Source: Erythrobacter aurantius
GTDB taxonomy: Bacteria; Pseudomonadota; Alphaproteobacteria; Sphingomonadales; Sphingomonadaceae
Assembly (NCBI RefSeq): GCF_023823125.1
Contig: NZ_CP090949.1
Location: forward strand, 496,001-560,000
DNA length: 64,000 bases
Direction: 5' to 3'
Position numbers and translations under genes: made by a program. The notes beneath the pieces are model-generated. The model worked only from the letters and a program-made list of their open reading frames with translations, searched no databases and was not told where the DNA came from. Position 1 is the stretch's first letter, and every line of letters begins with the position of its first letter. This document shows, in pieces, positions 22,198 to 38,062 of the stretch.

Positions 22198-22950
22198 CTA
22201 TTGCGGGATGGCGTTCCAATCGAGGTCGAATCTGGCGAGATATTTGCGCAGGCGATCGGCGCCGTTGGTGGATTTGCGCTGTTTGCGCGAGGCGGCGAAC
22301 AGGGTGCGGCCGGCTTCGGACAGGCTGGCTGACTTGCGGCAGACCTCGATCACATAGTCCAGCTGCACGCGATCAAACGGATCGATCAGCGCCATCCGGT
22401 CCTGGCCGATGAGTTCCTCCAATTGCCCGCCCTCTGCCGCCTCGCCCGACCACAGCCGCGCGAGGCGCTGCGTCTCGAAATCCACCGCCGCGCTGTCGAT
22501 CCTGCCGGTGGGGCACAGAGTCGCCATGCGGGTCACGCTGGCGGCGAGATCGCGGAAATTGCCCTGCCACCGGGCGGACGGGCTTTCGGCAAAGGCGAGA
22601 TAGCGCGTCCGAGCCTCCCTGTTGAAGGTGACACGCACGCCTTCGCGTTCGGCAAATCGCTCCAGCTCATAGTCTAGATTCGGGGCAATATCCTCGCGCC
22701 GTTCGGCAAGGCCGGGCAGGGAAAAGGTCCAGAGATTGAGCCGCGCGAACAGGTCTTCGCGGAAATTGCCCGCTGCCACTTCCGTCATCAGATTGCGGTT
22801 GGTGCCCGCGATCAGCTGGAATTCGCTCCTTGTCTCGGCATCGGCGCCCACCAGCAGAAACCGCCCCTCCTCGATCGCGCGCAGAATCATCGCCTGTTCG
22901 TAGAGGCCGAGTTCGCCGATCTCGTCTGATCCCGTTTCAAGGCTCCTCGC
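22198..22950 (-). pseudogene. rtcR: truncated RtcR (sigma54-dependent regulator)
   Basis: C-terminal half of a regulator like RtcR, which controls the rtcBA RNA-repair genes. Recognisable sequence begins at DEIGELGLYEQAMILRAIEE (Walker B region and beyond), continues through FQLIAGTNRNL and FREDLFARLNLWTFSLPGL, and ends with a DNA-binding tail (LSEAGRTLFAASRKQRKSTNGADRLRKYLARF). The N-terminal sensor (CARF-like) domain, Walker A and GAFTGA loop are absent. Sequence before DEIGEL no longer resembles the family. No rtcA or rtcB is nearby. It probably is a deletion remnant between two tRNA genes. Confidence 0.8.
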
Positions 22951-23068: not shown

Positions 23069-23155
23069 GCCCAGATGGCGGAATTGGTAGACGCACCGTC
23101 TTCAGGTGGCGGCGCTCGCAAGGGCGTGGAGGTTCGAGTCCTCTTCTGGGCACCA
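23069..23155 (+). tRNA. tRNA-Leu(CAG), island attachment gene
   Basis: Type II tRNA with a long variable arm. Acceptor GCCCAGA pairs with TCTGGGC. The anticodon stem CCGTC/GGCGG encloses TTCAGGT, with anticodon CAG at 23103-23105, and CCA is encoded. Its 3' end is the left copy of the repeat that bounds the genomic island. Confidence 0.96.
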
Positions 23156-23157: not shown

Positions 23158-23339
23158 ACCTTAATCGCGAACGTTCGCGATTGGTTGCTAAATCGTCGAT
23201 ATCCTGCCATTTTCTAAACCTCAGCTGGTTGCTGGGGTTCGGCATCGACCGCCTAAATTCGGGGCTCCAATGGACCAAAAAGGGGGCCTCGCCTTGAGTT
23301 TTCGGCCGAATTGATGCGATTTTGGAAAGTGGGGCCCAC

Positions 23340-24536
23340 ATGAAGCTGACCAACGCGCAAATTTCCCACGCAAAACCAAAGGATAAAGACTGCAAGCTAA
23401 CTGATGGTGGAGGCCTTCACCTGCTCGTTCGTAAGAATGGTTCGAAGCTATGGAAGCATAGGCTCCGAATCGACGGCCGAGAGCAGAAGCTTTCTTACGG
23501 TCCCTATCCGTTGGTCACACTCAAAGAGGCCCGTGAAAAGCGAGACATGACGAAACTTGCGATGTTGCGCGGCGAGAATCCAGTGCAGCAGCGGCGCGAA
23601 GCAAAGCTCGCAGCTCAATTTCGCGAGCAAAACTCGTTTCAGGATGTCGCCAAAGAGTTCATTTCTAAACGTGAGCAAGAGGGGCTTGCCCCGTCGACCA
23701 TCAAGAAATCGCGTTGGTTTCTCTCTCTCCTATCCCCTGCGATCGGTCGGCGTCCGATTGATGAGGTGTCGTCAATGGAGGTTCTTAGTGCGCTCAAGAA
23801 AATCGAGAAACGTGGACATCGTGAAAGCGCAAGGAAAACGCGATCGTTCGCCAGTAGAGTGTTCCAGTATGGGGTGATAACGGGGCGCTGCAGCTCGGAC
23901 CCGGCGCACCCTCTGCGAGGGGCGCTCGTCGCTCCGGTTGTGACTCACTATGCTGCAATTACGGATCCCGCCGAACTCGGTAAACTTCTGCGCGGAATCG
24001 ATCAGTTCGATGGGTTTCCGGCAAGTCGTTACGCTCTGAAGATCTTGCCACACGTCTTCGTTCGACCCGGTGAGCTTCGCCTCGCCGATTGGGCAGAATT
24101 CAATTTGAGGAAGGCCGAATGGACGATTCCGGAAGGCAGAATGAAGGCTCGAAAGCCTCACCGGGTCCCGCTCTCGAAACAAGTATGTGCCATGCTGAAT
24201 GAACTAGGGGCGGAAACCGACTTTAAGGGGTTCGTTTTCGCATCGCTTCACGCGAGAGGGCGGCCAATAAGCGAGAATACAATCAATCAAAGCTTACGGC
24301 GCTTAGGCTACCAGGGCAGCGAAATGACTGGACACGGCTTCCGCTCGACAGCGTCAACGTTGTTAAACGAAAGTGGTCGATGGAGTGCGGACGCAATCGA
24401 ACGCGCGTTGGCCCATAGAGACACGAATGCAATACGAGGTATTTATCACCGTGGAGAACATTGGGCTGAAAGGGTCGAGATGGCTCAATGGTGGTCCGAC
24501 TATCTTGATGATCTGAAGAAAGAGCGACTGCCCTGA
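23340..24536 (+). CDS. P4-type tyrosine recombinase (island integrase)
   Basis: Site-specific recombinase of 398 residues that integrates and excises the island at the tRNA. The N-terminal DUF4102 arm-binding region is typical (LTNAQISHAKPKDKDCKLTDGGGLHLLV), followed by a core-binding domain (about 100-180) and the catalytic domain. Catalytic residues are visible: Arg in VRPGELRLADW, the HGFR box, His in ALAHRD and the nucleophile Tyr in GIYHRGEH. ATG 23340 is chosen; TTG 23322 is in frame but less typical. The gene reads away from the tRNA, as is usual. Confidence 0.95.
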   Translation: MKLTNAQISHAKPKDKDCKLTDGGGLHLLVRKNGSKLWKHRLRIDGREQKLSYGPYPLVTLKEAREKRDMTKLAMLRGENPVQQRREAKLAAQFREQNSFQDVAKEFISKREQEGLAPSTIKKSRWFLSLLSPAIGRRPIDEVSSMEVLSALKKIEKRGHRESARKTRSFASRVFQYGVITGRCSSDPAHPLRGALVAPVVTHYAAITDPAELGKLLRGIDQFDGFPASRYALKILPHVFVRPGELRLADWAEFNLRKAEWTIPEGRMKARKPHRVPLSKQVCAMLNELGAETDFKGFVFASLHARGRPISENTINQSLRRLGYQGSEMTGHGFRSTASTLLNESGRWSADAIERALAHRDTNAIRGIYHRGEHWAERVEMAQWWSDYLDDLKKERLP

Positions 24537-24540
24537 ACCG

Positions 24541-24975
24541 TCAACACCGATGGTTCAGCCAATATCGATCCCACTTGAGCGCAGTCCCAGACCGAACCAT
24601 CTGGCAGGAAATGTCCCCCGAGACTGGAGAGTTACACCAGGCACCTGTCCGATTGCCGCCTGCGCTTCCTGTACTCCTGCACGATAGGGCTGGCCCTTTA
24701 ATTCGGATATGGCCCTGAGGCGTCCTACCTACAGGTTGACCGAGCAGGGAAACCAAGGCGTCGCGCGCCTGATCAGCTGTCGCACGAGGACATGGCTGAT
24801 TGGACTTACACGTTCCATCAGTTTCACGGGCCGCGATGCCTGCTAGGCGAAGCCTCGGCCCCTCTTCGCACCAAACCGGGCCATCTCCATCCCAAACGTG
24901 AGTAGGGGTGCACGTGAAAATTTCGCCTGCAGGAATTACAATGACTTGGCCTAGGAAAAGTATGAGAGAGAACAT
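24541..24975 (-). CDS. SNase-like (thermonuclease family) nuclease, exported
   Basis: Small protein of 144 residues related to staphylococcal nuclease-like proteins found in mobile elements. It has a hydrophobic N-terminus (MFSLILFLGQVIVIPAGEIF), so it likely acts outside the cytoplasm. The SNase-like signature VWDGDGPVW, RLRLAGIAARE (Arg and Glu of the active site) and ADQARDALVSLL is visible. Six or more Cys residues suggest disulfides. It begins seven bases after the coiled-coil gene, as the last gene of the leftward operon. It could be an effector of that system or an independent passenger. Confidence 0.75.
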   Translation of the reverse strand: MFSLILFLGQVIVIPAGEIFTCTPTHVWDGDGPVWCEEGPRLRLAGIAARETDGTCKSNQPCPRATADQARDALVSLLGQPVGRTPQGHIRIKGPALSCRSTGSAGGNRTGAWCNSPVSGDISCQMVRSGTALKWDRYWLNHRC

Positions 24976-24982
24976 TGAACTC

Positions 24983-25723
24983 TTATATTCCTTGAAGCTT
25001 ACCTAACTGTTTGATTGCCCCACCGTGTGATAGCGGATCGGCGAGGGCGGGCTCAAGAACCCTGAAATTTCCACCCGGTACGAGCTCAAATACGTCGCCA
25101 AAAGTTTGCTTGGCAGTGAGCCCATTCATCGATCGGTACAACTTCTCCCACTCTCTCGCGATCTTACCGATCGGAACGAGAATGCAGTCAGTGTTTCGCG
25201 CAGTTCGAACCAGCCAAAATTGTCCGTTCTCCTGCTCAACAACTCGCCCAGCATCGTGGGTGACCGCGACAGGAGAATATTTCCTCACGAAGTTATCTCG
25301 TCGCACTCCCGTAAATTCTGAGGCAAGGTCGTTGTAGTCCGCAAGTAGTTGATCTTGGAACTGACGTGCACCCTGAACATCACCGTCTCCCTGAATATCG
25401 TGCGCTCCGTTGTCGACTGTTGAACACGTCGGCGTTGGGTTCTCCCGTGGGAGTACAGCTTCTGCCTTTGCGAGTTGATATCTTGCCGCAGTTGATTCCT
25501 GTCGAAGAGACTGGAGCTTATCCTCCAATTCAGCAATACGAGAGTGTAAGTTGTTGTACCTTTGTCGGTTGTCTTGCATCAATTTCTTGTCGAGCTTGCG
25601 AAGCTTGGTGTTGCTTTCCTCAACTTCCGAATCTAGCGCACCTAGCTTGAGGGTTAGAAACAACAGCCAACCAGCGGCTAGGACGAGAATTATCGACGTA
25701 AGGATTGTGAGCAGGGACATCAC
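24983..25723 (-). CDS. membrane-anchored coiled-coil protein of island system
   Basis: Protein of 246 residues, family not recognised. A single N-terminal transmembrane segment (residues 4-27, LTILTSIILVLAAGWLLFLTL) is followed by a coiled coil (about 33-88, SKLRKLDKK-like heptads, HSRIAELEDKLQSLRQ). A C-terminal globular domain follows (DYNDLASEFTGVRRDNFVRKYSP, NGQFWLVRTARNTDCILVPI, FELVPGGNFRVLEP). The start overlaps the stop of the actin/Hsp70-like gene by four bases. It may tether the ATPase to the membrane; this is inference from topology and operon position. Confidence 0.75.
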   Translation of the reverse strand: MMSLLTILTSIILVLAAGWLLFLTLKLGALDSEVEESNTKLRKLDKKLMQDNRQRYNNLHSRIAELEDKLQSLRQESTAARYQLAKAEAVLPRENPTPTCSTVDNGAHDIQGDGDVQGARQFQDQLLADYNDLASEFTGVRRDNFVRKYSPVAVTHDAGRVVEQENGQFWLVRTARNTDCILVPIGKIAREWEKLYRSMNGLTAKQTFGDVFELVPGGNFRVLEPALADPLSHGGAIKQLGKLQGI

Positions 25724-28700
25724 AAGCGCTCCCGGACCCTGAGCTCATTATCTCTGTCAGAGACATTTTGACTCATGGTCTCAATAAGGAATCGAAGGGA
25801 GGTGATGAATGGAGCCTCCAAATCCTGCCCTTCGTGAAGATCTCGATCTTCAGGAGGGAGTTTGGACAACTGAGTGTTTAAATAGGAACGCGTCCTCAAT
25901 TGGATGGAACTCGCCGCAGGTTGGTCGTTAATGTCGACCAACAGTCCGCAGGCAACATTGAGGTTGCTCAGGAAAGTTTTGAGCTCCCCCAAATCAACGT
26001 CCTTTATGTTTGCGCCGTACGGAAGCGTCGCGATGTCGTCTGTAGGTGTAAAAGAGATCTGAGAGCCCGTCCCCTCTGCATGGAAAGCTAACCCGGCCGG
26101 CTCGAACACTGCGTCGGCGTGATTGAGCGAACTTGCATCTGCTTCCAGCAATAGTCCGCGGGCAACTTCTTCTTTGGGAAGCTTCGAGAAGCGAGGTTCA
26201 ATCGATCTTGGAGAAGCAAGGTCTTCCCGCACCATTCCAATCATCTTGGTGACGTCTTGTAGATCGCTAGAGTCGCCATCGGAAACGAACTGCCGGAAGA
26301 TAGTAGAGCCCCGTCCGCCAAGTGCTACAGTTAGCTCCGCGATATCTTTTTCATCGATCAACTGGCGGTCCTTCAGCACCATAAGGACCAAGCCCAGATA
26401 GTGGTGGAGTCCTCCAAGCGCAGTCTTGGCGACCTGTCTTAAGCCTGCCCAGGCAGGTTCACCCGAATGCAACGGGTATGCCCGATCGAAACGATCGGCA
26501 AAGTCCCGTCTTGCAATGATTAGCTCAACAAGCTGCCGGGCGCGGTAGCTCCGATCGGGAACCTCTTGAGCGGCAAGTGAAGCCTTGAAGGCCTGCACAG
26601 CATCACGGTCAATCGCTTCCAGAATTTCGAGGTTCTCAGCCAGGTAAGAATTGAAGAAGTGGGTCCCTGCAACTCTAGCCGAACCTTCCCAGATCAGAGC
26701 TTGATCTTTCCAGATGGCGATGTCGGTGGTTCCGCCGCCGACATCGAGCATGATCACAAGCCGCCCGACCCCCAATCGCTGCTGTTCAGGATCCAGCGTG
26801 AAATACTTCATCGCAGCTTCAGCCTCGGTGCTAAACCTTATACTGTCATGGTCAGCTCCGCCATCGGCGCCCTCACGTGACAGGCTCTCCCACGCGCCAC
26901 GGATGATCTGTTGGAAGGCCCGCTTGTGCTCAGTGCTAAACGCTTGAGGGAATGAAAACCGCCAGTTTATCTTGTTGGACATGATCCCTTGGCCGCGCAG
27001 CTCGGCCGCCACCATGATCATGAGCTGCTTCAGGAATGATTGGACCAGGGCTCGACCAGATTTAGTCTCTCCCCACTTAATATCAAAATCCAAAAGACCG
27101 CTGTTAATCTGGCTGAGCATGAACTCTGGACTGTCGGTTGTCCCTCCTCTCGGCATGAAGAAGACCATGTGAGAAAATCCGAATTGCTCAGAGCCGTGGT
27201 TCAACGCATCTCGGATTTCACTTGGTAGCGCCCCACCCCCAAACTCGCGCTTCTTCGCTATTGTCGGAACGGGGGTCTCATGATCATTGACCGGGAAGAA
27301 ATCGGTGTATGTCCCGGCAACTTGAGATTTCCCATCCTCAGTCTTGATCGGGAGTAATACGCGATCATCAAATGAGATGCGTTTTGCTGGTTCAGCTCCC
27401 TTGCGGCTATAGGCAATTGTGTTGGTTGTACCGAAGTCAAAAGCCACCACGGCCGGCTCGACCTTCTGCGAAACCTCGTCCTGGCGAACTCGCACACATC
27501 CAACAGGCACATCTCGGTTCCGCTCTTCGTCGCGCATAGCGAAGAAAATTGCCTGCACGCCGTGCGGCAGTCGATGTTGCTCACCAACTACTTGAGCATC
27601 GTTTCGAAAACGGAACCTCTCCAAGATCAGGTGGCCAGCTTCATCTTTTTCGGCGCTAATGTCCTTCGCCTTGAGGCTTTGATCGATCAATAGATCATCG
27701 GATGCCCAATCAGACAACTTTCGACGCCTAGTTTGCGGATCTGGAAATTCACAAATCGCAGCTACGAAGTCAGATGATGCAGCGAAGCGCGTCATTAAGT
27801 CACTGCGTTTGTTGTACTGGAAGCGAAGAAACGTCCACGGCCATTCCGGAGCAGAGAAGTTGGGCCAGATTGCAAGATCGCTCGGCGGAGGAACGGTATG
27901 GATGTCTTTGGTGGCGAAGGTTCGGGAAACCCGATGACGCGCTCGAGAATTAACCAGCTCGACCTGCAAAGAGAACTTGTAATCCTCTCCATTCTGGGAA
28001 AACTGCGCGTCATCTGACCAATTTTCTAACAATAGGGCAATCGGGGTGACAGGCAGAAGCTCGTTCCTGAGCGACGAAGGATTCGCTGGGACCTCTGCTC
28101 CCTCATCCAATCGGACCATCCGAGTAGTGAAGATATCATCGTTGACCAGCACCAGATAACCGTCGGCAAGTGCTTCCGATTTGATTTGGTTGAGCGTCGC
28201 GGGCGAAACTGCGTCACGAAGCGTATACTGTTTCCAAACCGCGACTTCGGACGCATCCTTGCCTAGAGTTTCTGCGATCTTCTCGTCGACTAGGATGATA
28301 CCATCGTAAAGCGCGCTCGCTTTTCCCCGAGCTGTCGCAACAAGACATTCGCTCTGTGTCGGAGCAATCCCTCCTGAGTCTAGAACCTTGGTGCGTCCCA
28401 ACACTTGGAAGAAAGGATCGGGCCAAGCATAGTCAAGTGTTGTTGATCTAAGTTGGAAATCTCCGATAGCGCGGCCAGCGGCTTCACCTTGAAACTCCCC
28501 AATCTGTCTCAAAAGCTCGTCGCGGTACTTCCGCTCAATATTGGGAGCGGACCTTTCCTCAATCGCGCGACTGAGATTTTTAAGGTAGTCGCTAAGGATC
28601 GCGAATTCCTGGGCTGTCACTCCATTGGCTTTTAGTGGATCACAAAGCCCGCTAGCCAGCCACGGCACTGACGGTTTCGAGACGCGGGACGCCATGCGTC

Positions 28701-29199
28701 CAGGTGCGACAAGGATACTAGGCGAAAGAAAAGCGAAGGGTGTCGCACCTTTGGACCCCGAAGCGCGATCAATAAATCCGACCACGCCCAGACGGGTCCA
28801 AGGCAGATCAAGCGATTTTGAAGGTTTCGGCAAGAGCGCTTTTAGTACTCTTGCAAGTCCGCTTGGCGTTGCCGGATTATCGAGGTCCAATGATGTTAGT
28901 TCGAGGGAATACTCAGCGCTGTATCTAGGCTGGAGGGCGAAAGTTGCGAGCAGCCCCCGCCACTGTGATATCACATCCTGATGGGCATCATGGTCGAGAT
29001 CGAAGAAAGCGTCGGTAGTCAGTTGAGCCTGAGCCCAAGCATCCGGGATACTCTTTAATTCATCCGTCCTAATCGGGGCTTTGTCCAAGCGTAGTGAGCG
29101 CGCAAGCGCGTTCAAGCTGGAGACTGCAGCCCAGTCACCCTTCGATTTGGGCTCAGCAAGCCCCTCGGTAGTGACAGGCGGGAGGTTGTAGAAAGGCAT
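25720..29199 (-). CDS. large protein with actin/Hsp70-type ATPase core
   Basis: Protein of 1159 residues. The N-terminal half (about 1-570) is not recognised. The second half carries all three hallmarks of the actin/Hsp70 ATPase fold: phosphate-1 FDFGTTNTIAYS near 586, phosphate-2 LDVGGGTTDIAIW near 820, and an adenosine-type motif LGGRGSTIFRQF near 963. Large proteins of this type include SrfB-like proteins; membership is not claimed. Its start overlaps the tubulin-like gene stop by one base (TAATG) and its end overlaps the coiled-coil gene, so stoichiometric production is likely. It is probably a nucleotide-driven chaperone, filament or switch. Confidence 0.85.
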   Translation of the reverse strand: MPFYNLPPVTTEGLAEPKSKGDWAAVSSLNALARSLRLDKAPIRTDELKSIPDAWAQAQLTTDAFFDLDHDAHQDVISQWRGLLATFALQPRYSAEYSLELTSLDLDNPATPSGLARVLKALLPKPSKSLDLPWTRLGVVGFIDRASGSKGATPFAFLSPSILVAPGRMASRVSKPSVPWLASGLCDPLKANGVTAQEFAILSDYLKNLSRAIEERSAPNIERKYRDELLRQIGEFQGEAAGRAIGDFQLRSTTLDYAWPDPFFQVLGRTKVLDSGGIAPTQSECLVATARGKASALYDGIILVDEKIAETLGKDASEVAVWKQYTLRDAVSPATLNQIKSEALADGYLVLVNDDIFTTRMVRLDEGAEVPANPSSLRNELLPVTPIALLLENWSDDAQFSQNGEDYKFSLQVELVNSRARHRVSRTFATKDIHTVPPPSDLAIWPNFSAPEWPWTFLRFQYNKRSDLMTRFAASSDFVAAICEFPDPQTRRRKLSDWASDDLLIDQSLKAKDISAEKDEAGHLILERFRFRNDAQVVGEQHRLPHGVQAIFFAMRDEERNRDVPVGCVRVRQDEVSQKVEPAVVAFDFGTTNTIAYSRKGAEPAKRISFDDRVLLPIKTEDGKSQVAGTYTDFFPVNDHETPVPTIAKKREFGGGALPSEIRDALNHGSEQFGFSHMVFFMPRGGTTDSPEFMLSQINSGLLDFDIKWGETKSGRALVQSFLKQLMIMVAAELRGQGIMSNKINWRFSFPQAFSTEHKRAFQQIIRGAWESLSREGADGGADHDSIRFSTEAEAAMKYFTLDPEQQRLGVGRLVIMLDVGGGTTDIAIWKDQALIWEGSARVAGTHFFNSYLAENLEILEAIDRDAVQAFKASLAAQEVPDRSYRARQLVELIIARRDFADRFDRAYPLHSGEPAWAGLRQVAKTALGGLHHYLGLVLMVLKDRQLIDEKDIAELTVALGGRGSTIFRQFVSDGDSSDLQDVTKMIGMVREDLASPRSIEPRFSKLPKEEVARGLLLEADASSLNHADAVFEPAGLAFHAEGTGSQISFTPTDDIATLPYGANIKDVDLGELKTFLSNLNVACGLLVDINDQPAASSIQLRTRSYLNTQLSKLPPEDRDLHEGQDLEAPFITSLRFLIETMSQNVSDRDNELRVRERL

Positions 29200-30743
29200 T
29201 ACAAAGCTCCCTTCTGTTCTCGGACGCTACAAAAATCATGGAGGGATCCAATAAACTGGCCCAACCCTTCAAACTGGCCAGAAACTGCGTCTGTGTTCAT
29301 TCGATAGTGAAGATGTGAGGCATCTGATAACGGCTCAGCGCCACCCAAACTATCAACCAATTTAGCGTAGCCCGAATGCAAATCACCGTCGCTCAATTGG
29401 GTGCGAAGTCGTACTGGGTTGGTCGGGGAATCGAAGTTCGCCTCCCCATCGACAAGAGGATCGGTATTCCACAACGACCACCCCAAGTCTTGCCTGTCGG
29501 CATAAGCCTTCATCGTTGCGAGCCAATTCACTGAAGCGTCGAGGTAGTCATCGAGCGAAGCCAGATTTGCGGATCCAGGCTCATTGCTGAAGTCAACTTC
29601 CGTCAGGCGCTGCTTCTTGAACCAATTGTGAGAACTGTACTCGTCTTTCCATTTCTCTCGCCGCAGGATCGGTTGCCACAGTTTCCAAGCAGCTGCGAAC
29701 CGGAGATGTCGGGCAACCATTTCATATGGCAGATCAGGAAACTTGGCGTTCGGGCTGGGCAAATCGCTCCACCCTACGCGGTTGGCGGATTCCCGTGCGC
29801 TGACCAGAATTTCTCCGGTGGGGGCGTGACTTGACGTTAGGAAGCGAGCCGCACCGAGCGCGGCAAGAACTTCTGGGAGTAGTGCGGGGTTCCGTTGCTC
29901 ACCCGTACCAGGCTGATGGTATCCTAAGTCGAAAGGAGGATTCCATCCAACTAGGAAGAGTTCGTCGAAGATTCTCTCACGCTCTAAAAGGGAGTGATAG
30001 TATCGCAAAGCACCTCGCGTTTGAGGGAGTAGATCTTCTGTTCTCGCCACATTTGCGTCAACGTCTTCGGGTGCCGAGAAGCGGAAGTAAGGCAGCATTA
30101 GAATGCCGCCAACGTGAATGTTTCTATCCAATCCGGCCAGATCGATAATGCGGCGAACTAAACGACTTATCGTCGGGAAGCCTGCCGCGCCTGTGCCACC
30201 AAATACGGAGCCAACAAGAAGAATTCGAACTTCGTCCCCACCTTTCGCGTTTGCGATTTCTTCTTCTAGGTCCCTCCAAAACTTCGGGGAATCGGCTGCG
30301 GCAGACGTGATCGCCGCAGAACCGATATGAGCGCGTCCTCGGTAACCCTCATCCAGGCGCATCTGTTGTTCCAGAGGACCCTGAGCAAAAAGCAAGTCCA
30401 ATGCCGCCCCGTCTTTTCCGAGGTGCCCGAGGAGCTGCACCAGAGAGGCTTTAGTTTCGGGGTGTGGGACCCATAGGCCTGATCCCAGTGCATCGACTCT
30501 GGCTTTCAGCAGGTCGCCATCACCAATGAAGTGCGGGGAGCCCGAGGTTCGCCACTGCTTGCGTGCCCGATTGATCAACTGCAGTGCTTCTCGAGTGCGG
30601 CTTACGTTGCCATTACTTTGGTCTTGGTCAACTAGGCCCACAGTTAGATTCGATGGGCCTAGGCCAATCGCCGTAGCATGTAGAATGGCCTCGACAACTT
30701 TCGCGCCGGTGCCCCCGATTCCTATCACGATGTTCTTAGACAT
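29199..30743 (-). CDS. tubulin-like GTPase (Tubulin_2 type)
   Basis: Protein of 514 residues with a tubulin/FtsZ-type nucleotide-binding domain. Near the N-terminus is IVIGIGGTGAKVVEAIL (first glycine loop). The tubulin signature loop is VFGGTGAAGFPTISRLVRR near residue 183. A structurally typical NPALLPEVLAALGAARFL helix follows. It differs clearly from the cell-division FtsZ and fits the PF13809 group. ATG 30743 is used because GAGG sits at good spacing upstream. It is coupled to the actin/Hsp70-like gene. Whether it polymerises is unknown. Confidence 0.85.
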   Translation of the reverse strand: MSKNIVIGIGGTGAKVVEAILHATAIGLGPSNLTVGLVDQDQSNGNVSRTREALQLINRARKQWRTSGSPHFIGDGDLLKARVDALGSGLWVPHPETKASLVQLLGHLGKDGAALDLLFAQGPLEQQMRLDEGYRGRAHIGSAAITSAAADSPKFWRDLEEEIANAKGGDEVRILLVGSVFGGTGAAGFPTISRLVRRIIDLAGLDRNIHVGGILMLPYFRFSAPEDVDANVARTEDLLPQTRGALRYYHSLLERERIFDELFLVGWNPPFDLGYHQPGTGEQRNPALLPEVLAALGAARFLTSSHAPTGEILVSARESANRVGWSDLPSPNAKFPDLPYEMVARHLRFAAAWKLWQPILRREKWKDEYSSHNWFKKQRLTEVDFSNEPGSANLASLDDYLDASVNWLATMKAYADRQDLGWSLWNTDPLVDGEANFDSPTNPVRLRTQLSDGDLHSGYAKLVDSLGGAEPLSDASHLHYRMNTDAVSGQFEGLGQFIGSLHDFCSVREQKGAL

Positions 30744-30750
30744 AGGGACC

Positions 30751-31329
30751 TCAATATCGCCAAAGGCGAGCGGCAAATGGGACAGAAGGCTTCATGACCG
30801 GCGAAGCAGCTATTGATGTGGCCAACCAGTACACAAATGCGCCAATGATCGCTGATGAGCCAACAAAGCCCCAAAATATGGCGTCATCCATGAACTCGTC
30901 CACATTCAACGGTTCAATCACAGCGAAATAGGCGCCCGCGCAAATTACAAGGTAGCCGAGAAGAGCCCCCACCCAATGCACGAAAGCATCTGATTGACCT
31001 GCTGGTCCAACCACTTTGCGCTGTACGAGGGTGGCCATTAGGAACCACAAGATGGTGCAAAGAGCACCTGCCGCAGTGATGATTATAATCCACTGAAAAA
31101 GGCCATCGGCGATGTTCGCTAGGTAGAGTTGAATTTGGCCATCATTGGGGCCCACTGCATCAATTGCAAATGGATCAGAGCCTCCCCCATCAGAGGATGG
31201 GCCCGCGGTGACGGCCGGATCAAGTATGGTGGCCGTACTTGCCGCCTGATCTATCACAAGCCAACCCGCGAGAAATAGCAGGAGGAAAAGGAAAACGGGA
31301 GCGATTAGCCCTTTAGCCAGGTCTTTCAT
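30751..31329 (-). CDS. four-helix membrane protein of island system
   Basis: Protein of 192 residues with about four transmembrane helices (residues 8-26, 77-99, 115-138 and 147-168) and a periplasmic-looking Gly/Ser/Asp-rich loop between the first two. No family is recognised. Its ATG directly abuts the vWA gene stop, and it ends seven bases before the tubulin-like start. Likely the membrane base of the leftward operon products. Confidence 0.75.
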   Translation of the reverse strand: MKDLAKGLIAPVFLFLLLFLAGWLVIDQAASTATILDPAVTAGPSSDGGGSDPFAIDAVGPNDGQIQLYLANIADGLFQWIIIITAAGALCTILWFLMATLVQRKVVGPAGQSDAFVHWVGALLGYLVICAGAYFAVIEPLNVDEFMDDAIFWGFVGSSAIIGAFVYWLATSIAASPVMKPSVPFAARLWRY

Positions 31330-32754
31330 CTATCGTTCAACTCTCAATAGAAAACCAAAAGAGGCAGCTTTCCGACTGGCGCCGGTTGCGCGACTAAGTT
31401 CGTTTTCGAGGATGGTGGTCAGTTCACTCAAGTTTAGCGTCTTGAATGCGGGCTCCTGAGTGTCGACAAGCTGACGCGCATTCTCTGCGTCGAGCGACCA
31501 GTCTCTCATCCATTGGTTCGCCTTGTTTGGGACGGCAAGTGGGCTGGAGCCCACGTGGGTCTCGAGATAATAAACGTTGCCAGGCAGCAGTTGCCCCTGG
31601 ATTTCCGGACCAAAAGAAAATGTGGCTTGCTCGCCGTCTGGCCGCAGCTCCCAGAGCCCGCGAATGCCGCCTATCTCTGTCCAAGTGTCCGCACCACAGG
31701 CTTCCAAATCCGCATCAGCCCTGAGTTGCCAAGCATTCGTGAACTCAGCGAGACCACCCCACCAAACCAGGCCCTCGCGCAAGGTATTGTTTAGCTGTAT
31801 CGTCTTCCCCAAACGACCGCTCTGGGCGTCTGCGACCCCAAGCTGCAGCAGGTATTGTTCGACCCCTCGCAATGCTTGATCTTCGGAGATCAGGTTTCTG
31901 GAAGCGCCCGCACCTATCGCCCTGAGCTGAGCAGGGATCACTGGGTTGTTGGGCTCCTTTGAGAACAGCGAGTAGTTCATCCGATCCGACGAGAAGGAGG
32001 AACTACCCGACTGCTTCAGATTGATCTGGAAATTGGAAATATCCTCTTCGGGTCCGATCGCCAGCACGAATAATGGCAGCTCCTTGGCGCCCCTGTAGGT
32101 CCCTACACCAGGGACATCATATACGGCGCCATTGAACGGTGCCAAAATGCCGATTACCCCTATGGACATACCATCTTGCAGCGCTTGGCGAAGAGGCTGT
32201 CCCAAAGCAATTTGCGGGCTGGATGTTAGAGATCGATTATCTAGCCATAAATCAGTGATGATCAGGCTTACCGTATCTTTCCCCGCCGTGGTCGCGGCCT
32301 TCAAAACATTGTCGAGGCGACTTTCCTGGTTGTCACAAGACTGACAATCGAATGGAGCTGTGCCGCCGAAACTCGCAAGTTGGCTGGCCGGAATTTCCTT
32401 GATCTCTTTGCCGAACGCGTAGAATTCGGCGTTCTCATAATCGCTTGCCCGTTCACCAATTAGCGCAAGCAAGTCCCCCATTGGCCGCAGTTCCTGAGTG
32501 GCGCCGCGATTGAAGCCCGCCATGCTCTGAGAGCGATCAATATAGACCGTAAAATTGGAAGCCCTGAGGACTTCATCGGATTTGACAGCCGCTAAGGTGG
32601 AATTTCTTGGCAGGCATGTTGTAGCAGAAGGCGCGGTAATTTCACCGTTTCCACCTGGATCGGCCCCATCGCCGCAAGCTTGCAAAGCTAACGCGGAAGC
32701 CACTATCACACTGGTCCGCCGTATTGCTGACAAGCCAGCAAACAGCTGGGCCAT
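31330..32754 (-). CDS. vWA-domain lipoprotein-like protein of island system
   Basis: First gene of the leftward operon, about 474 residues. The N-terminus is a signal segment ending in a lipobox-like LALQAC, pointing to a secreted and perhaps lipid-anchored protein. A vWA-like domain (about 70-280) starts with the MIDAS motif DRSQS in FTVYIDRSQSMAGF and includes DTVSLIITDLWLD and ELPLFVLAIGPEED. Beta-rich domains follow. Metal-dependent ligand binding at the cell envelope is inferred. ATG 32754 is listed; GTG 32769 after GGGGGATGAA is an equally plausible start. Confidence 0.8.
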   Translation of the reverse strand: MAQLFAGLSAIRRTSVIVASALALQACGDGADPGGNGEITAPSATTCLPRNSTLAAVKSDEVLRASNFTVYIDRSQSMAGFNRGATQELRPMGDLLALIGERASDYENAEFYAFGKEIKEIPASQLASFGGTAPFDCQSCDNQESRLDNVLKAATTAGKDTVSLIITDLWLDNRSLTSSPQIALGQPLRQALQDGMSIGVIGILAPFNGAVYDVPGVGTYRGAKELPLFVLAIGPEEDISNFQINLKQSGSSSFSSDRMNYSLFSKEPNNPVIPAQLRAIGAGASRNLISEDQALRGVEQYLLQLGVADAQSGRLGKTIQLNNTLREGLVWWGGLAEFTNAWQLRADADLEACGADTWTEIGGIRGLWELRPDGEQATFSFGPEIQGQLLPGNVYYLETHVGSSPLAVPNKANQWMRDWSLDAENARQLVDTQEPAFKTLNLSELTTILENELSRATGASRKAASFGFLLRVER

Positions 32755-32913
32755 TTCAGGAAATCTCACTTCATCCCCCACTTGCTCAGTCGATTCTGGC
32801 TGGCACTTTAAAGCGCTCTATGTCAACTAAATTCAAGATGCCTTTATCGGGGCATCAGAGGAAATAGCCAGCATATCTAAATAGGGGCTGGGCCTTAGGG
32901 CTCAGGACGAGGA
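32755..32913. promoter_or_regulatory. divergent promoter region of the two island operons
   Basis: The only gap between the leftward vWA-tubulin-actin operon and the rightward ZorA/ZorB-like operon. It is A/T-rich and must hold both promoters. No repressor gene is adjacent and no clear operator palindrome was found by eye. Confidence 0.5.
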
Positions 32914-34539
32914 ATGTACCAAGACGTATTGAGTATAAGCCTTACGATTGCAGCTATTGCCATTGCGCTCGGGATTGTCGTTTATGGTGTCTCTAGAACC
33001 AAGAAAATGATGCGCGATCTCGAGGATTTGTCACATAGCTTGGAGAATGCTCAGGCGCATCTAGGCGATGTGCATTCCGGGAAAGATTTTTACATCGAAT
33101 TTGATCAGAAGAGCAACTTGCTCGCCATGGTCAATATCCTCGGGCCTAGTTGGCGCGCATATAGCCGCCAAGTGGTTCGCTCTGATGAGCGAGGGGTGAT
33201 TGGTTCTCCCAAGCCGGCGTCGGACTACTTTAATTATGACTTGCTCTATGCGCCGGATATTCAACTGCGGCGCCATGAAGCAATACCAAATCAGCTTGTC
33301 GGCTTGGGCCTGTTTTTTACGTTCGTGGGCTTGGCGCTATCGCTGTTTATCGCCAGTTCGGGGCTCGACGGCGATATTGAAACCGCCAAAGAGTCTCTCA
33401 TCGCCCTGATGTCGGCTTCAGCGATGAAGTTTGTGACTTCGATTGCTGCCATATTCTCTGCGCTCGCATTCACTCATTTTAAGAACCAGAAGTTGGCCGA
33501 ATTGCATCCTGCCATCGATCAATTTGCGCAGCGTGTTGATAGCTTGGTCGTTCCTATCTCTCAGGAGCAAGTCGCCGAGGAGACTCGGCGTGAGCTGGTG
33601 GTCCAAACGAAGTTTCTTGAGGATCGCAACGAAGATCTAGCGCGTGCGATTGCTTCAGAACTGGATGAGCGTTTGAAGACGAGCCTGCATGATGCCTTGC
33701 GTCCGGTCGCTCAGGAAATCGCCAAGATGGCAGAGACGATGGGAGAGATCAGCGAGAATACCATGCGACACATGGTCGAAACATTCTCGAAGGAACTTGG
33801 GAGTGCGGCACGCGAACATAGCCGCCGCATGGCTGAACTCTTGGAAGCAGTTTCAAAAGCTGTCGAGCAGGTTCCGGAAAAAATCGAAGCTTCAAGCGAA
33901 AAATTCTCGGAAGCTATGGCGGTCTCTGCAAAGAATGTGGAATCCACATTTGGTGGAGCCACCAGCTCGTTGCAGAAAGTTCTCGAGGACACAGCGAAGC
34001 TGATGCAGACAAGCTCAAAAAGCTGGGCCGGCGTCAGCGCTTCACTTTCAAAACTCACAGACGAACTGGGCGGTACGCAGGACGCGTTTGGAGAGCGGTT
34101 GGAAGCCATCCAACTTACGACTGACGAGACGATTTCTCAGCTTAAATCGATGGCCGACATAATGCGCGATGGAACAACACATTTGCCGAAGATGGATGAA
34201 GTCGCAGCCAAACTCGAAACAGCTGCGAATGCTTTGGATAGAAGCGTGTCTGAGATCGCAACGCTTGAAAGCGTAGGCGATGACACGCGCGAACGAGCGG
34301 CGGAGGCAGCAAGACAGTTCGCGGCTTCGGTGACCACGATTGAGCAGGAAATGAAAACCCTGGACCAATCGCTCGGCTCAGTATTCTCAAAGATAGAGGC
34401 GGGTTTGAGAGTGTTCGGCGAACAGGCTGATCAAATCACAAGCACATTCGATAAAAACTTGGCCCAAGCAGTGGACCGGTTGGATCAAACAATACGTCGC
34501 TACGAAGGACGTGGCAGCATGTCAGAGGCCGCGGAATAA
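32914..34539 (+). CDS. ZorA-like MotA/TolQ/ExbB-family channel subunit
   Basis: Inner-membrane ion-channel subunit with a long cytoplasmic tail, 541 residues. There are three transmembrane regions: residues 5-28 (ISLTIAAIAIALGIVVYGV), about 128-150 (LVGLGLFFTFVGLALSLFIA) and 170-192 (SASAMKFVTSIAAIFSALAF). The last two form the MotA-like pair. From about residue 200 to the end the protein is predominantly coiled-coil (repeated LxxxAKxxETMGEISENT-type heptads). This layout is that of ZorA in Zorya defence. ATG 32914 is preceded by AGGACGAGGA. It overlaps the ZorB-like start by one base. Confidence 0.85.
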   Translation: MYQDVLSISLTIAAIAIALGIVVYGVSRTKKMMRDLEDLSHSLENAQAHLGDVHSGKDFYIEFDQKSNLLAMVNILGPSWRAYSRQVVRSDERGVIGSPKPASDYFNYDLLYAPDIQLRRHEAIPNQLVGLGLFFTFVGLALSLFIASSGLDGDIETAKESLIALMSASAMKFVTSIAAIFSALAFTHFKNQKLAELHPAIDQFAQRVDSLVVPISQEQVAEETRRELVVQTKFLEDRNEDLARAIASELDERLKTSLHDALRPVAQEIAKMAETMGEISENTMRHMVETFSKELGSAAREHSRRMAELLEAVSKAVEQVPEKIEASSEKFSEAMAVSAKNVESTFGGATSSLQKVLEDTAKLMQTSSKSWAGVSASLSKLTDELGGTQDAFGERLEAIQLTTDETISQLKSMADIMRDGTTHLPKMDEVAAKLETAANALDRSVSEIATLESVGDDTRERAAEAARQFAASVTTIEQEMKTLDQSLGSVFSKIEAGLRVFGEQADQITSTFDKNLAQAVDRLDQTIRRYEGRGSMSEAAE

Positions 34540-35282
34540 TGTCTGGCAAGGCAAATCACGCACAGCATCAAGACACGTACTTTATCTCGCTCAACGACCT
34601 TCTCGTTGGCTTGCTTTTCATATTCATTGTTCTCCTCATGACGTACTCGCTCATATTTCAGGACTCCGTAGACAAACTCGAAGACAAGCTAACCGAGCGA
34701 GTTGAGATGAGAACCAGCTTGCTCGAACGCATACGGGCTGATTTGTGCGAGGCTGGATATGAAGCTGAAGTGATTCCCGGGGAAGGCGTTCTGCGGTTGC
34801 CTGAGGGTGTGTTGTTCGCTCCCGGGCAAGCATTCTTGGGTGAAAGAGCGCGTGGTGCACTCGATATTATTGCTGACGCGCTTGGCGAAGAATTGCCTTG
34901 TTTCGGTTCTGAGCGCGACGCTGCTTCGTGCGCAGAAAACACTGCAGCAATTTTGGAAGCTGTATATATCGAAGGACACACGGACGACCTCGCAATCAAT
35001 ACCCCGCAGTTTCGAAGCAACTGGGAGCTGTCATCCGCCAGGGCGATCGCGACGTACAATTATATGATTAACGCAGACGGGGCATTGAAAGAGCTGCCGA
35101 ATGCGAATGGGAGTGCCACTTTGCTAGGTGCGAGCGCTTATGCCGATACTCGTCGCGTTGCAAAATCCGAGCAGCCCAATGCGGCGGAACGCGCTCAGAA
35201 TCGCCGGGTCGATTTTCGCTTCCTGCTTTCGCCTGCAAGTGAAGAGGACGTTGAGGCCGCTGCAATCGAGGCTGCGAACTGA
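34539..35282 (+). CDS. ZorB-like MotB/OmpA-domain protein
   Basis: Partner of the ZorA-like channel, 247 residues. A short cytoplasmic N-terminus leads into one transmembrane helix (about 18-42, SLNDLLVGLLFIFIVLLMTY). The Asp in SLNDLL at its start corresponds to the proton- or ion-carrying residue of MotB/ZorB. The C-terminal OmpA-type domain (from about 140) shows YIEGHTDDLAINTPQFRSNW, LSSARAIATYNYM and RAQNRRVDFRF, which bind peptidoglycan. Together with ZorA-like it should form an ion-driven stator anchored to the cell wall. It overlaps the neighbours by one base on each side. Confidence 0.87.
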   Translation: MSGKANHAQHQDTYFISLNDLLVGLLFIFIVLLMTYSLIFQDSVDKLEDKLTERVEMRTSLLERIRADLCEAGYEAEVIPGEGVLRLPEGVLFAPGQAFLGERARGALDIIADALGEELPCFGSERDAASCAENTAAILEAVYIEGHTDDLAINTPQFRSNWELSSARAIATYNYMINADGALKELPNANGSATLLGASAYADTRRVAKSEQPNAAERAQNRRVDFRFLLSPASEEDVEAAAIEAAN

Positions 35283-35665
35283 TGCAATTCGAGCGCAGCA
35301 AGTTGGAATTGGAAGCTCTTGAAGCTCAGGCGAATCGTTTGCCGCAACGGATAACGGAACCAAGGCAACTACGGAGCAAGTTGGACGAGCTTGGCAAGCA
35401 TGGTGTCAAGCCGGTCGATCAAGCAGTCAGGCTGCTCACACAATTTAGCGACACTCTCGATCGGTACACGCAGCACAAACTTGGCAGTGATGAGGCGAGA
35501 AAGCCATCGGGAGGATACATACTCGCGCGGCCCCCAGCTGAACCAAGTAAGGCAGGGCAGAGCTGGCAAGAGTTGGCGCGTGAGAAGGGCCGCAAGCTTG
35601 CTCGGTCAGCGTTGATGTATACTAGTCGCGGTTTGCGTGCATTTGTGAACTGGCTTCAGCGCTGA
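35282..35665 (+). CDS. small unknown protein of ZorA/ZorB-like operon
   Basis: Protein of 127 residues, not recognised. Helical and charged (ERSKLELEALEAQANRLPQR, VDQAVRLLTQFSDTLDRYTQ) with a basic C-terminal helix (KGRKLARSALMYTSRGLRAF). No signal peptide or enzyme motif. It begins inside the ZorB-like stop (TGATG), so it is translationally coupled and probably belongs to the system. It occupies the place where Zorya systems carry their effector genes, but it resembles neither ZorC, ZorD nor ZorE. Confidence 0.7.
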   Translation: MQFERSKLELEALEAQANRLPQRITEPRQLRSKLDELGKHGVKPVDQAVRLLTQFSDTLDRYTQHKLGSDEARKPSGGYILARPPAEPSKAGQSWQELAREKGRKLARSALMYTSRGLRAFVNWLQR

Positions 35666-35977: not shown

Positions 35978-36244
35978 ATGAAGCGAAGCAGGTTCAACGA
36001 AGAGCAGATCATTGCGATCTTGAAGGAGCAGGAAGCGGGCATGGCGACGACTGAGGTCTGCCGCCGCCACGGGATCAGCTCGGCGACGTTCTACAAGTGG
36101 AAGTCTAAGTTCGGCGGGCTCGAGGTGTCCGAGGCCCGGCGGCTGCGATCGCTCGAGGAGGAGAACTCGCGGCTGAAGAAGCTGCTGGCCGAGGCGATGT
36201 TGGACAACGCGGTGCTGAAGGATCTGGCATCAAAAAAATGGTAA
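35978..36244 (+). CDS. IS3-family transposase OrfA
   Basis: Helix-turn-helix protein of 88 residues with the usual OrfA pattern ([42 protein letters not shown]) followed by a leucine zipper. It ends in DLASKKW just after an A7 run at 36232-36238. It binds the IS ends and provides the N-terminus of the fused transposase. Confidence 0.95.
36232..36238 (+). other. A7 slippery site for -1 frameshift
   Basis: The heptamer A AAA AAA is in phase with the OrfA codons (tcA AAA AAA). A shift of -1 here enters the OrfB frame, whose own ATG is at 36238. This is the standard way IS3 elements make the OrfAB transposase. Confidence 0.7.
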
Positions 36245-37128
36245 CGCCCGGCGCCAAGCGGGAAGCCGTCGCCTATGCCCGGGAGCATCACGGGGTGAGC
36301 GAGCGTCGGGCGTGTGCACTGGTTGGTGTGAGCCGCAGGGTAATCCGTTACGAGCCTACAAGGCCAGATGACGGGGCGCTGCGGCAACGGCTGCGCGAGC
36401 TGGCGGCGGAACGCCGCCGGTTCGGCTATCGCCGCCTGGGCTACCTTCTGGCGCGGGAAGGCATCAGGCCCAACCACAAGAAGCTGCTGCGCATCTACCG
36501 GGAGGAGGGGCTGCGCGTGCGTCGCCGTGGCGGCCGGAAAAGGGCCTTGGGCACGCGCAGGCCGATGGTGCTGCCGGACGGCCCGAACCAGCGTTGGTCG
36601 CTCGACTTCGTCTCCGACAGCCTGATCTGCGGTCGGCGCTTCCGTATCCTGTGCGTGGTCGATGACTACACGCGCGAGTGCCTGGCGCTGGTGGCCGATA
36701 CGTCGCTGTCGGGTGCTCGGGTAGCGCGGGAACTGACCAGCCTTATCGGCATCCGGGGAAAGCCGCATACGGTGGTCAGCGACAATGGCACCGAACTGAC
36801 CTCGTCGGCCATCCTGCGCTGGTCGCAGGAGCGCAGGGTCGAGTGGCACTACATCGCACCGGGAAAGCCAATGCAGAACGGCTTCGTGGAGAGCTTCAAT
36901 GGCCGCCTGCGCGACGAATGCCTCAACGAGACGCTGTTCACCTCGCTGGCCCATGCCCGGTTCGTGCTGGCCGCCTGGCGACACGATTACAACACGGTCA
37001 GGCCACACTCGAAACTGGGCGGGAAGACCCCCGCCGAGATCGCCGGCCAACGTGTCTGGGGGCATGCCCCCAGACACGTTGCCATCCCATCAAACAACCA
37101 TCATGAAGGAGCCAGACTCTACCTCTGA
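36238..37128 (+). CDS. IS3-family transposase OrfB
   Basis: Catalytic DDE domain, 296 residues, normally made as an OrfA-OrfB fusion by frameshift at the A7 run. The DDE residues are visible: Asp in RWSLDFVSD, Asp in [11 protein letters not shown], and Glu in [16 protein letters not shown]. The N-terminal helix-turn-helix region ([19 protein letters not shown]) is complete. The frame is intact, so the element may still be active. Confidence 0.95.
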
Positions 37129-37673: not shown

Positions 37674-38062
37674 GCCTCTCTCCCAAAATTAAGCGCCCTT
37701 GCTATCTCGAATCAGGGTATATAAAATTGAGAAGTTCTTTTTCGAAAGATTGCGCTGAATTCATCGCTAGCTTAGTAGAAATGGGCCTCGAACCCAGTAA
37801 GAGAATATCTTGCGGGGGCCAATTTGGGGGCCAACTCTGTGAATCCCTGGCGCAACTCGAATTAAATCAGGTACTTGAAAGAGGCCCTCGAGTCCTCTTT
37901 TGGGCACCATTTCATCATTCATCACAGCTCGCTGACGGTTGTCAAAACCCCGCAATCTTTGCGGTTTGAGCTTGAATTTTACCTGCAGGATCGCCTCGCT
38001 CCCAGAGGCATGTGGGGTCGTGTTCCATTGCCGAGGCCCCCGATAGCCGGTGCTGCCAATCA
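37674..38062. other. gene-free right end of island and junction
   Basis: 389 bases without a convincing gene. They hold two direct copies of GGGGGCCAA (37814-37822 and 37826-37834), the right copy of the tRNA-Leu 3' end (37888-37911) and 151 bases of chromosomal flank before the amidohydrolase stop. Confidence 0.6.
37888..37911 (+). repeat. attR copy of tRNA 3' end
   Basis: TCGAGTCCTCTTTTGGGCAC followed by CATT matches the tRNA-Leu 3' end at 23134-23157 with a single C-to-T change. No tRNA body precedes it, so it marks the right junction of the integrated island. Confidence 0.85.

What the first reader, a model, noticed from the sequence alone, without database searches (positions are those of the whole stretch)
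24541..35665. Candidate undescribed conflict system: ZorA/ZorB-like motor with tubulin-, actin- and vWA-type proteins
Two divergent operons on a tRNA-integrated island carry nine coupled genes. Leftward: vWA lipoprotein-like, four-helix membrane protein, tubulin-like GTPase, large actin/Hsp70-like ATPase, membrane coiled-coil protein, exported SNase-like nuclease. Rightward: ZorA-like channel, ZorB-like peptidoglycan-binding stator, 127-residue protein. Zorya defence uses ZorA/ZorB to sense envelope damage on phage entry and then deploys cytoplasmic nucleases; here the usual effectors are absent and a tubulin/actin-type NTPase pair is present instead. I infer an envelope sensor-motor linked to a filament or chaperone machine. 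I know of no described system with this full gene set.
Basis: partly seen in the sequence, partly recalled or inferred. Interest (0 to 1): 0.92.

Follow-up and report, generated by a model that had tools for sequence, protein, structure and literature searches.

The report
Motor-linked bacterial tubulin–actin envelope machine
A mobile DNA island in a bacterium carries a conserved but little-known set of genes that joins a probably wall-anchored, ion-driven membrane motor to two cytoskeleton-like enzymes, perhaps to sense and respond to damage of the cell envelope such as that caused by infecting viruses.

Summary
The gene set is real and is the main cargo of a 14.8-kb tRNA-Leu island (GC 54% against 63% outside). 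Profiles support ZorA/ZorB-like motor proteins and a Tubulin_2 GTPase. The actin/Hsp70-like call rests on motifs and a weak profile match, the vWA call on motifs alone. The leftward genes (vWA-like lipoprotein, 3–4-TM protein, tubulin, actin, coiled-coil membrane protein) form an ordered core that I found in four phyla. ZorA/ZorB-like genes lie beside 12 of 34 core loci (3 of the 12 partial). Some other loci carry SH3, TonB_C, OmpA, TerD or WG proteins. So the nine genes are a core plus an exchangeable front end, not one fixed system. The SNase-like gene is a common mobile-element gene, not a part. ZorC and ZorD are absent, so this is not Zorya by definition. Closest prior work: the FtsZl1–vWA–OmpA system predicted in 2010 and the tubulin/HSP70 GTPase systems of 2020; in what I read neither names motor plus tubulin plus actin. 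Defence is plausible but unproven; no effector was identified and no structure could be predicted.

The parts
23136..23155 (+). attL-like repeat, 3' end of tRNA-Leu
   Evidence: tRNA
23322..24536 (+). tyrosine integrase of the island
   Evidence: Pfam Phage_integrase, Phage_int_M, Arm-DNA-bind_3
24541..24975 (-). 144-aa SNase-like mobile-element gene; judged NOT part of the system
   Evidence: no Pfam hit; relatives in 24 of 81 family genomes, own included, and 56 plasmid records
24983..25723 (-). core gene 5: one N-terminal TM, coiled coil, conserved C-terminal domain
   Evidence: TM; C-terminal domain shared with proteins of 5 other alphaproteobacterial core loci: L005, L006, L009, L089, L012
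25720..29199 (-). core gene 4: large actin/Hsp70-superfamily ATPase with ~580-aa N-terminal region of unknown kind
   Evidence: DFGTTNT at 588, DVGGGTTDI at 819, LGGRGS; profile hits MreB 4e-5, Hsp70 4e-3
29199..30776 (-). core gene 3: Tubulin_2 (FtsZl1-type) GTPase; likely start at codon 12 (about 30743)
   Evidence: PF13809 34.0 bits over cut-off 27; GIGGTG and FGGTGAAG; start by alignment
30751..31329 (-). core gene 2: four-TM protein
   Evidence: hydropathy; a protein with usually 3-4 TM segments in the same place in most other core loci
31330..32781 (-). core gene 1: vWA-like lipoprotein (vWA by motif only); likely start near codon 10
   Evidence: DRSQSM motif, LQAC lipobox-like stretch read; homologues in 4 phyla
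32914..34539 (+). ZorA-like MotA/ExbB-family motor subunit with long coiled-coil tail
   Evidence: PADLOC 8e-36; NCBIfam 139 bits, below cut-off 190; PDB 8vvn_C 7e-10
34539..35282 (+). ZorB-like MotB-family subunit, one TM, OmpA-type (peptidoglycan-binding type) domain, Asp20
   Evidence: PADLOC 9e-69; OmpA 34.1 bits; D20 aligns with D24 of 8vvn_B
35282..35665 (+). 127-aa protein of unknown role, coupled to zorB
   Evidence: no family above cut-off
35978..37128 (+). insertion sequence in the island (IS3 type by recall), not part of the system
   Evidence: rve and HTH_21; GC 64.7%
37890..37909 (+). attR-like repeat
   Evidence: 19 of 20 identical to the tRNA end

Best explanation
An envelope-spanning stress/defence machine carried as island cargo. 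SHOWN BY SEQUENCE: a ZorAB-like 5TM-family motor (ZorB Asp20 and ZorA Thr/Ser positions kept, OmpA-type domain) beside an ordered core of a vWA-like lipoprotein, a 3-4-TM membrane protein, a Tubulin_2 GTPase, a large actin/Hsp70-superfamily ATPase and a membrane-anchored coiled-coil protein. INFERRED: the motor is anchored to peptidoglycan; the lipoprotein and membrane proteins sit around it in the envelope; ZorA's coiled-coil tail reaches into the cytoplasm. A local envelope disturbance, such as phage DNA entry or conjugation, changes the motor's or lipoprotein's state. This is passed through the membrane proteins to the tubulin and actin-type NTPases, which assemble there in an NTP-dependent way and reshape, seal or block the site, instead of calling in the ZorC/ZorD pair of Zorya. 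In relatives without a motor, the same core would take its envelope input from an SH3, TonB-C, OmpA or TerD-type protein. The effector step is the least certain.
For: Core order kept in four phyla. Tubulin queries returned 30 loci; an actin-type gene is adjacent (or fused) in 28; of the 24 that the actin query had not already brought in, 22. Tubulin loop FGGTG in 28 of 28 intact stand-alone tubulins (L210-L213 not in that count). Second phosphate motif in 23 of 28 actin proteins. ZorA/ZorB-like pair in 12 of 34 loci; independent ZorB profile 6 of 14 loci against 2 of 20 controls, 0 of 20 with the MotB layout. Window and L010 motors group with type I Zorya motors. Mobile setting: tRNA island with att repeats and GC drop; relatives 4-6 kb from a TrwC relaxase (L012) or ArdC (L010), on cyanobacterial plasmids and IMG/VR contigs, one beside a phage tail-family gene (L211). 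Winogradskyella copy 5 kb from a type I restriction system. Patchy: 3 of 149 family genomes, 6 of 246 of the order, 14 of 395 Bacteroidota, own or centre genome included.
Against: No phage or envelope experiment exists here. No effector enzyme in the core. First phosphate motif of the actin by the strict pattern in only 14 of 28. Some copies sit among ordinary genes by eye (L108; L109 and L111 share neighbours), unlike a defence island. No VWA hit in Pfam for 15 members. The actin call is weak by single sequence. Filament formation is not shown, and Makarova and Koonin could not confidently identify T6-H7 elements in FtsZl1. 22 of 34 core loci lack ZorAB. The viral nature of L212 and L213 was not confirmed: the one neighbour scanned is a helicase family.
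Confidence: 0.42

Rival explanations
1. A housekeeping-type envelope-remodelling or envelope-stress machine, as Makarova and Koonin proposed for FtsZl1. The motor supplies force across the periplasm, and the tubulin/actin pair bends or scaffolds the inner membrane; spread on mobile elements is incidental.
For: FtsZl1 with vWA and OmpA proteins was predicted to be membrane remodelling. Neighbour-conserved copies in some Bacteroidota. Several front ends are envelope proteins in general: TonB_C, SH3_3, OmpA. vWA-fold force transducers for ion motors have been proposed (PMC12204202, passages).
Against: Patchy occurrence, cargo of an integrase island, nearby relaxase, plasmids and IMG/VR contigs, ZorAB of type I Zorya kin, TerD neighbours in L012 and L117, type I RM neighbour in Winogradskyella.
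Confidence: 0.33
2. An NTPase-gated conflict system of the kind of Kaur et al. 2020, where tubulin and HSP70-type proteins assemble as the effector after sensing by a vWA protein. The motor is only a sensor.
For: GTPase-centric systems with tubulin, vWA and HSP70 components are described in PMC7159879 (passages and sections 27 and 30 read).
Against: The tubulins and HSP70s described there occur with GAP1 and FNIII proteins, mainly in Firmicutes and Actinobacteria, and with no ion motor in what I read.
Confidence: 0.15
3. Two unrelated cargo modules by chance side by side: a Zorya motor remnant that lost ZorC/ZorD, and an unrelated tubulin/actin operon.
For: ZorAB is absent from 22 of 34 core loci; the window's ZorAB groups with type I Zorya motors; in its family ZorB-like genes otherwise occur without the core.
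Against: The same pairing recurs in Sandarakinorhabdus at 26-38% identity in the same divergent layout, in Bacteroidota in one direction and on IMG/VR contigs; Asp20 is kept in 9 of 9 aligned ZorB.
Confidence: 0.07
4. A plasmid or island segregation (partition) device using tubulin and actin filaments.
For: TubZ and ParM are tubulin and actin partition proteins (recalled; also in the listing); copies on cyanobacterial plasmids and a ParB-like methyltransferase near one copy (L210).
Against: Membrane and lipoprotein-like partners in the core loci inspected; many copies outside plasmids. No centromere-like array was looked for.
Confidence: 0.03

Closest known systems
FtsZl1 (Tubulin_2) – vWA – OmpA predicted membrane-remodelling system (Makarova and Koonin 2010, PMC2875224)
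   Same: Tubulin_2 family GTPase; neighbour genes for a vWA-type protein, OmpA-domain proteins and membrane proteins; lineage-specific partners.
   Different: Text parts 1-4 of 5, which I read, name no actin/Hsp70-type partner and no ZorA/MotA partner for the OmpA protein, and stress a P-loop GTPase and kinases, of which no Pfam hit is shown for the nine proteins here. Its supplement, which lists uncharacterised partner families, was not read.
Type I Zorya (ZorABCD)
   Same: ZorA- and ZorB-like motor with the critical Asp, long ZorA tail, OmpA-type domain.
   Different: No ZorC or ZorD hit; NCBIfam ZorA and ZorB1 cut-offs not met; coupled to a tubulin/actin core.
DO-GTPase/GAP1 systems with tubulin, vWA and HSP70 parts (Kaur et al. 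2020, PMC7159879)
   Same: Idea and parts: tubulin, HSP70, vWA, membrane components, mobile neighbourhoods.
   Different: No P-loop GTPase or FNIII hit shown by Pfam; described mainly in other phyla; an ion motor here instead.
Ter system (TerD proteins)
   Same: TerD genes stand near the core in L012 and L117.
   Different: No TerD hit among the nine window proteins.

Membership tests
Zorya type I | ZorA and ZorB motor proteins | tested here: met
   PADLOC 8e-36 and 9e-69; 8vvn chains
Zorya type I | ZorC and ZorD effectors encoded with ZorAB | tested here: not met
   No PADLOC ZorC/ZorD hit in the nine proteins; the remaining island ORFs are an integrase, an IS and a 173-aa protein without Pfam hit, too small or of other kinds; PADLOC was not run on those three
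Zorya type I | NCBIfam curated cut-offs for ZorA_1 and ZorB1 | tested here: not met
   139 of 190 bits; 11.3 of 400 bits
Zorya type I | Ion-carrying Asp of ZorB and Ser/Thr ring of ZorA | tested here: met
   D20 aligns with 8vvn_B residue 24; PMC11890865 names D24 as critical in type I ZorB. D20 invariant in 9 ZorB, T136 and S176 invariant in 9 ZorA; that T136 and S176 belong to the ring is inferred
FtsZl1 system (Makarova and Koonin) | Tubulin_2 family GTPase | tested here: met
   PF13809 34.0 bits, cut-off 27; PMC9871819 (passages) equates the Tubulin_2 group with FtsZ-like of 2010
FtsZl1 system (Makarova and Koonin) | vWA-domain protein in the operon | tested here: inconclusive
   MIDAS-like motif but no Pfam VWA hit; fold job could not be run
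FtsZl1 system (Makarova and Koonin) | OmpA-domain protein nearby (in several genomes) | tested here: met
   ZorB-like protein, OmpA 34.1 bits
FtsZl1 system (Makarova and Koonin) | Distinct P-loop GTPase or Ser/Thr kinase (frequent, not universal) | tested here: not met
DO-GTPase/GAP1-N2 systems | DO-GTPase plus GAP1 | tested here: not met
   No P-loop GTPase among the Pfam or NCBIfam hits shown; GAP1 itself was not tested
Anti-phage defence systems | Protection against phage | not testable with these tools
   needs plaque assays
Cytomotive filament proteins | NTP-dependent polymerisation | not testable with these tools
   needs purified proteins

The most novel reading that the evidence does not exclude
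A new type of mobile immune system: a Zorya-like, wall-anchored ion motor, or another envelope probe swapped into the same slot, hands the alarm to a paired tubulin GTPase and actin-type ATPase that build a cytoskeletal plug or reshape the membrane at the phage entry site, with no nuclease at all.
Probability: 0.3. Interest if true: 0.9.

Novelty: new variant of a known kind. Interest (0 to 1): 0.66.

Why it matters
A tubulin-superfamily and an actin-superfamily enzyme encoded side by side in one operon, in four phyla, and repeatedly placed next to an ion motor of the MotAB/ZorAB kind, would be a new kind of partner for such motors besides flagella, gliding, transport and nuclease defence. It also gives the 2010 FtsZl1 'membrane remodelling' proposal a concrete, testable machine: candidate partners (actin-type ATPase, ZorA-like channel) and a modular front end can be tested by deletion and Asp20 mutation in ordinary laboratory bacteria.

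Tried and rejected
A viral-contig scan with the window's tubulin alone found nothing; an 8-row alignment then found four loci. No match of the window tubulin in annotated phages. SNase-like gene as effector: rejected. An aspartyl protease and an exonuclease/phosphatase-like lipoprotein (by eye) downstream of the Winogradskyella copy were considered as effectors; no counterpart in the window, left open. Independent recruitment of the motor in Alphaproteobacteria and Bacteroidota: suggested by the trees (ZorB groups 97/99 and 100/100) but a single origin is not rejected (AU p 0.26 for ZorB; for ZorA the single-origin tree was 1.65 log units better, p 0.655). Rows left out there: L116, L118, the Bacteroidota Zorya row and two outgroup rows for ZorB; L116 and that Zorya row for ZorA; L118 and L149 were never in the ZorA set, and L112 and L147 in neither. 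ZorA rows were cut to 330 residues, and every first residue was written as M. The A1 searches of class and phylum gave mostly short matches in frames of about 350-480 residues, taken by length as MreB/FtsA kin; only the long ones were used. The A7 profile hit 89 of 168 Bacteroidota genomes, but only 3 hits passed 100 bits, all at core loci that had helped build A7, so this is no independent evidence; of the lower ones I looked only at L153, L154 and L155. A Pfam scan of three Bacteroidota motor pairs failed by my own faulty reference and was not repeated; PADLOC was run on them instead. No promoter stood out between the operons (1 found, 0.6 expected). Structure prediction was tried 16 times and never ran.
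Full report
WHAT IS THERE. The window holds two divergent gene sets between 24541 and 35665, beside an integrase and a tRNA-Leu. A 20-nt near copy of the tRNA 3' end at 37890–37909 closes the island at 14.8 kb (shuffles gave no match). GC is 54.2% inside and 63.6% and 63.2% outside; 7-kb pieces outside range 61.9–65.6%, inside 53.3–55.3%. The IS at 35978–37128 has host-like GC (64.7%) and probably came later (inference). The island is thus acquired DNA whose main cargo is this system.

FAMILIES. Tubulin: PF13809 above cut-off, with GIGGTG and FGGTGAAG loop motifs. ZorB: OmpA above cut-off, PADLOC ZorB1 9e-69, near full-length match to 8vvn_B at 5.5e-23; Asp20 lies on its Asp24, which Mariano et al. 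name as the critical Asp of type I ZorB (PMC11890865; abstract, passages and outline). ZorA: PADLOC 8e-36, but 139 bits against a cut-off of 190 in NCBIfam, so a relative rather than a textbook ZorA. Actin/Hsp70: Pfam alone is weak (MreB 0.008, FtsA 0.016); an eight-sequence profile reaches MreB at 4e-5 and Hsp70 at 0.004 around the second phosphate motif. Across 28 actin proteins the second phosphate motif fits a strict pattern in 23, the first in only 14. No relative of the N-terminal half was found in these searches. vWA-like: no VWA hit in Pfam for 15 members (the eight of A4, window included; L107; six more), and no chain named vWA in the PDB profile search. I keep 'vWA-like' only because a loose [DE]x[ST]x[SGTN]M pattern fits 26 of 27 members and because published neighbours of FtsZl1 are vWA proteins.

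RELATIVES. I counted 34 loci, dropping duplicates (L007=L006, L008=L005, L011=L089, L090=L009, L015=L105): nine alphaproteobacterial (window, L005, L006, L009, L089, L088, L010, L012, L074), 15 Bacteroidota (L105–L118, and L184), one Bacillota (L013), five cyanobacterial plasmids (L185–L189), four IMG/VR contigs (L210–L213; L212 and L213 are near copies, and L006, L009 and L089 are close kin). An actin-type gene stands next to the tubulin, or fused to it in L118, in 32 of 34; the exceptions are L106 (contig edge) and L112 (broken tubulin, no actin seen). Because some loci were found by the actin query itself, I also counted the 30 returned by tubulin queries (six, six, 14, four): 28 have the actin. 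Six of these 30 (window, L005, L006, L009, L089, L105) had already come by the actin; of the other 24, 22 have it. Gene order vWA-like, 3–4-TM, tubulin, actin, usually then a membrane coiled-coil protein, is the same across phyla; in L115, L117, L118 and L210 no vWA-like gene was recognised by the profile.

THE MOTOR. ZorA- and ZorB-like genes lie beside the core in 12 of 34: the window, L010 (Sandarakinorhabdus rubra, same divergent layout), L105, L107, L109, L110, L111 (clear), L112, L116, L118 (partial: broken tubulin; ZorA-like just under the MotA_ExbB cut-off; ZorB at 1e-4), L212 and L213. A Cytophagaceae genome has ZorAB on one short contig (L119) and the actin on another (L014); not counted. 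Because the first ZorB profiles included such sequences, I made one from six type I Zorya rows plus the window and L010. At E 0.01 it hits 6 of 14 Bacteroidota core loci (L110 only at 0.005) and 2 of 20 control stretches from five of the same genomes (one-sided Fisher 0.035 by my arithmetic). The two control hits are 378- and 677-aa OmpA-type proteins; if a 200–280-aa one-TM layout is required, a condition I added after seeing them, it is 6 of 14 against 0 of 20 (0.002). PADLOC's ZorB models also hit the four Bacteroidota ones that I scanned (L105, L107, L109, L119: 1e-10 to 5e-14); their ZorA hits are weak (3e-5 at best, none for L107).

SPECIFICITY. In the window's family, ZorB-like genes occur in 7 of 169 genomes, its own included. 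None of the six others has a core gene in the fetched flanks (two of these are short contigs of 3.2 and 5.1 kb). Four of the six were scanned and hold ZorC, three of them also ZorD. So in this family ZorAB usually serves Zorya, and here serves another partner.

ONE OR SEVERAL ORIGINS. In ZorB and ZorA trees the window and L010 fall with type I Zorya, and the Bacteroidota motors form their own group. A single origin is not rejected. Either the core took up motors more than once, or Zorya and this system share a motor ancestor.

OTHER FRONT ENDS. Where no motor is seen, neighbours that I scanned include envelope-type proteins: SH3_3 in L006, TonB_C (66.6 bits) in L088, OmpA in L115; also TerD in L012 and L117, WG repeats in L108 and L114, DUF805 in L005; the L074 neighbours gave nothing clear, and those of L113 were not scanned. 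My reading is an exchangeable envelope-sensing slot.

MOBILITY AND DEFENCE. For: the island; a TrwC relaxase and S24 repressor 4–6 kb from the core in L012, an S24 repressor also beside a type I Zorya (L152), ArdC near L010, plasmids in cyanobacteria, IMG/VR contigs (L211 with tail and methyltransferase families, L210 with ParB/methyltransferase and DNA-invertase families; for L212 only a helicase family was seen), and a type I restriction system (HsdR, HsdS) about 5 kb upstream of the Winogradskyella copy. Against: several Bacteroidota copies sit among ordinary genes by eye; no effector; no phage test; flanks were not scanned systematically for defence genes. I hold defence a little more likely than housekeeping envelope work, which is why my confidence is 0.42.

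CORRECTION. The 144-aa SNase-like gene is a mobile-element gene: 24 of 81 family genomes, own included, and 56 of 72,556 plasmid records (31 typed conjugative, 14 mobilizable) have relatives, far beyond the core's 3 of 149. One relative stands near the core in L012, within the relaxase module. It should be left out.

PRIOR WORK. Makarova and Koonin 2010 (PMC2875224; text parts 1–4 of 5 read; supplement not read) described FtsZl1 with vWA, OmpA, GTPase and kinase genes and proposed membrane remodelling. Kaur et al. 2020 (PMC7159879; passages and sections 27 and 30) described GTPase-centred conflict systems with tubulin, vWA and HSP70 parts. A 2025 paper on force transducers (PMC12204202; passages) proposes vWA-fold motor partners. 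CoCoNuTs (PMC11090510; passages) use Hsp70-like domains; 'tubulin' does not occur in that text. In the searches (open-access library, listings) I saw no paper that names a ZorAB–tubulin–actin set; subscription papers are not covered.

VERDICT.

Noticed in passing
window 22198-22890 (-): 230-aa sigma-54 activator fragment; only the end of the Sigma54_activat profile (113-165 of 168) and the AAA lid match, so probably a truncated regulator between two tRNA genes; it resembles RtcR (recalled, not tested).
   Followed up: partly
L088:5469-6740 (-): A TonB C-terminal domain protein (66.6 bits) encoded divergently from a tubulin/actin core, in the slot where the window has ZorAB.
   Followed up: partly
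L118:10097-15142 (+): A single 1681-aa protein that fuses the tubulin-like and the actin-like parts.
   Followed up: no
L152:537-13490: A type I Zorya system lies beside an S24-type repressor and a 995-aa protein that looks like a relaxase by eye (not scanned); an S24 repressor and a TrwC relaxase also flank the core of L012.
   Followed up: partly
L187, L188, L189: In three Picosynechococcus plasmids the core sits a few kb from an alternate F1F0 ATPase operon and a TM2-domain gene.
   Followed up: no
L105:18876-19385 and L015:15453-16418: Downstream of the Winogradskyella motor genes: an aspartyl-protease gene (a similar one by eye in L119) and an endonuclease/exonuclease/phosphatase-like protein (by eye).
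   Followed up: partly
L112:6925-12067: A decayed copy: tubulin in two pieces, ZorA and ZorB recognisable, no actin gene seen.
   Followed up: no
L006:16216-17937 and L006:7715-8701: A ~120-aa domain is shared by the coiled-coil core protein and the divergent SH3 protein of the same locus.
   Followed up: no
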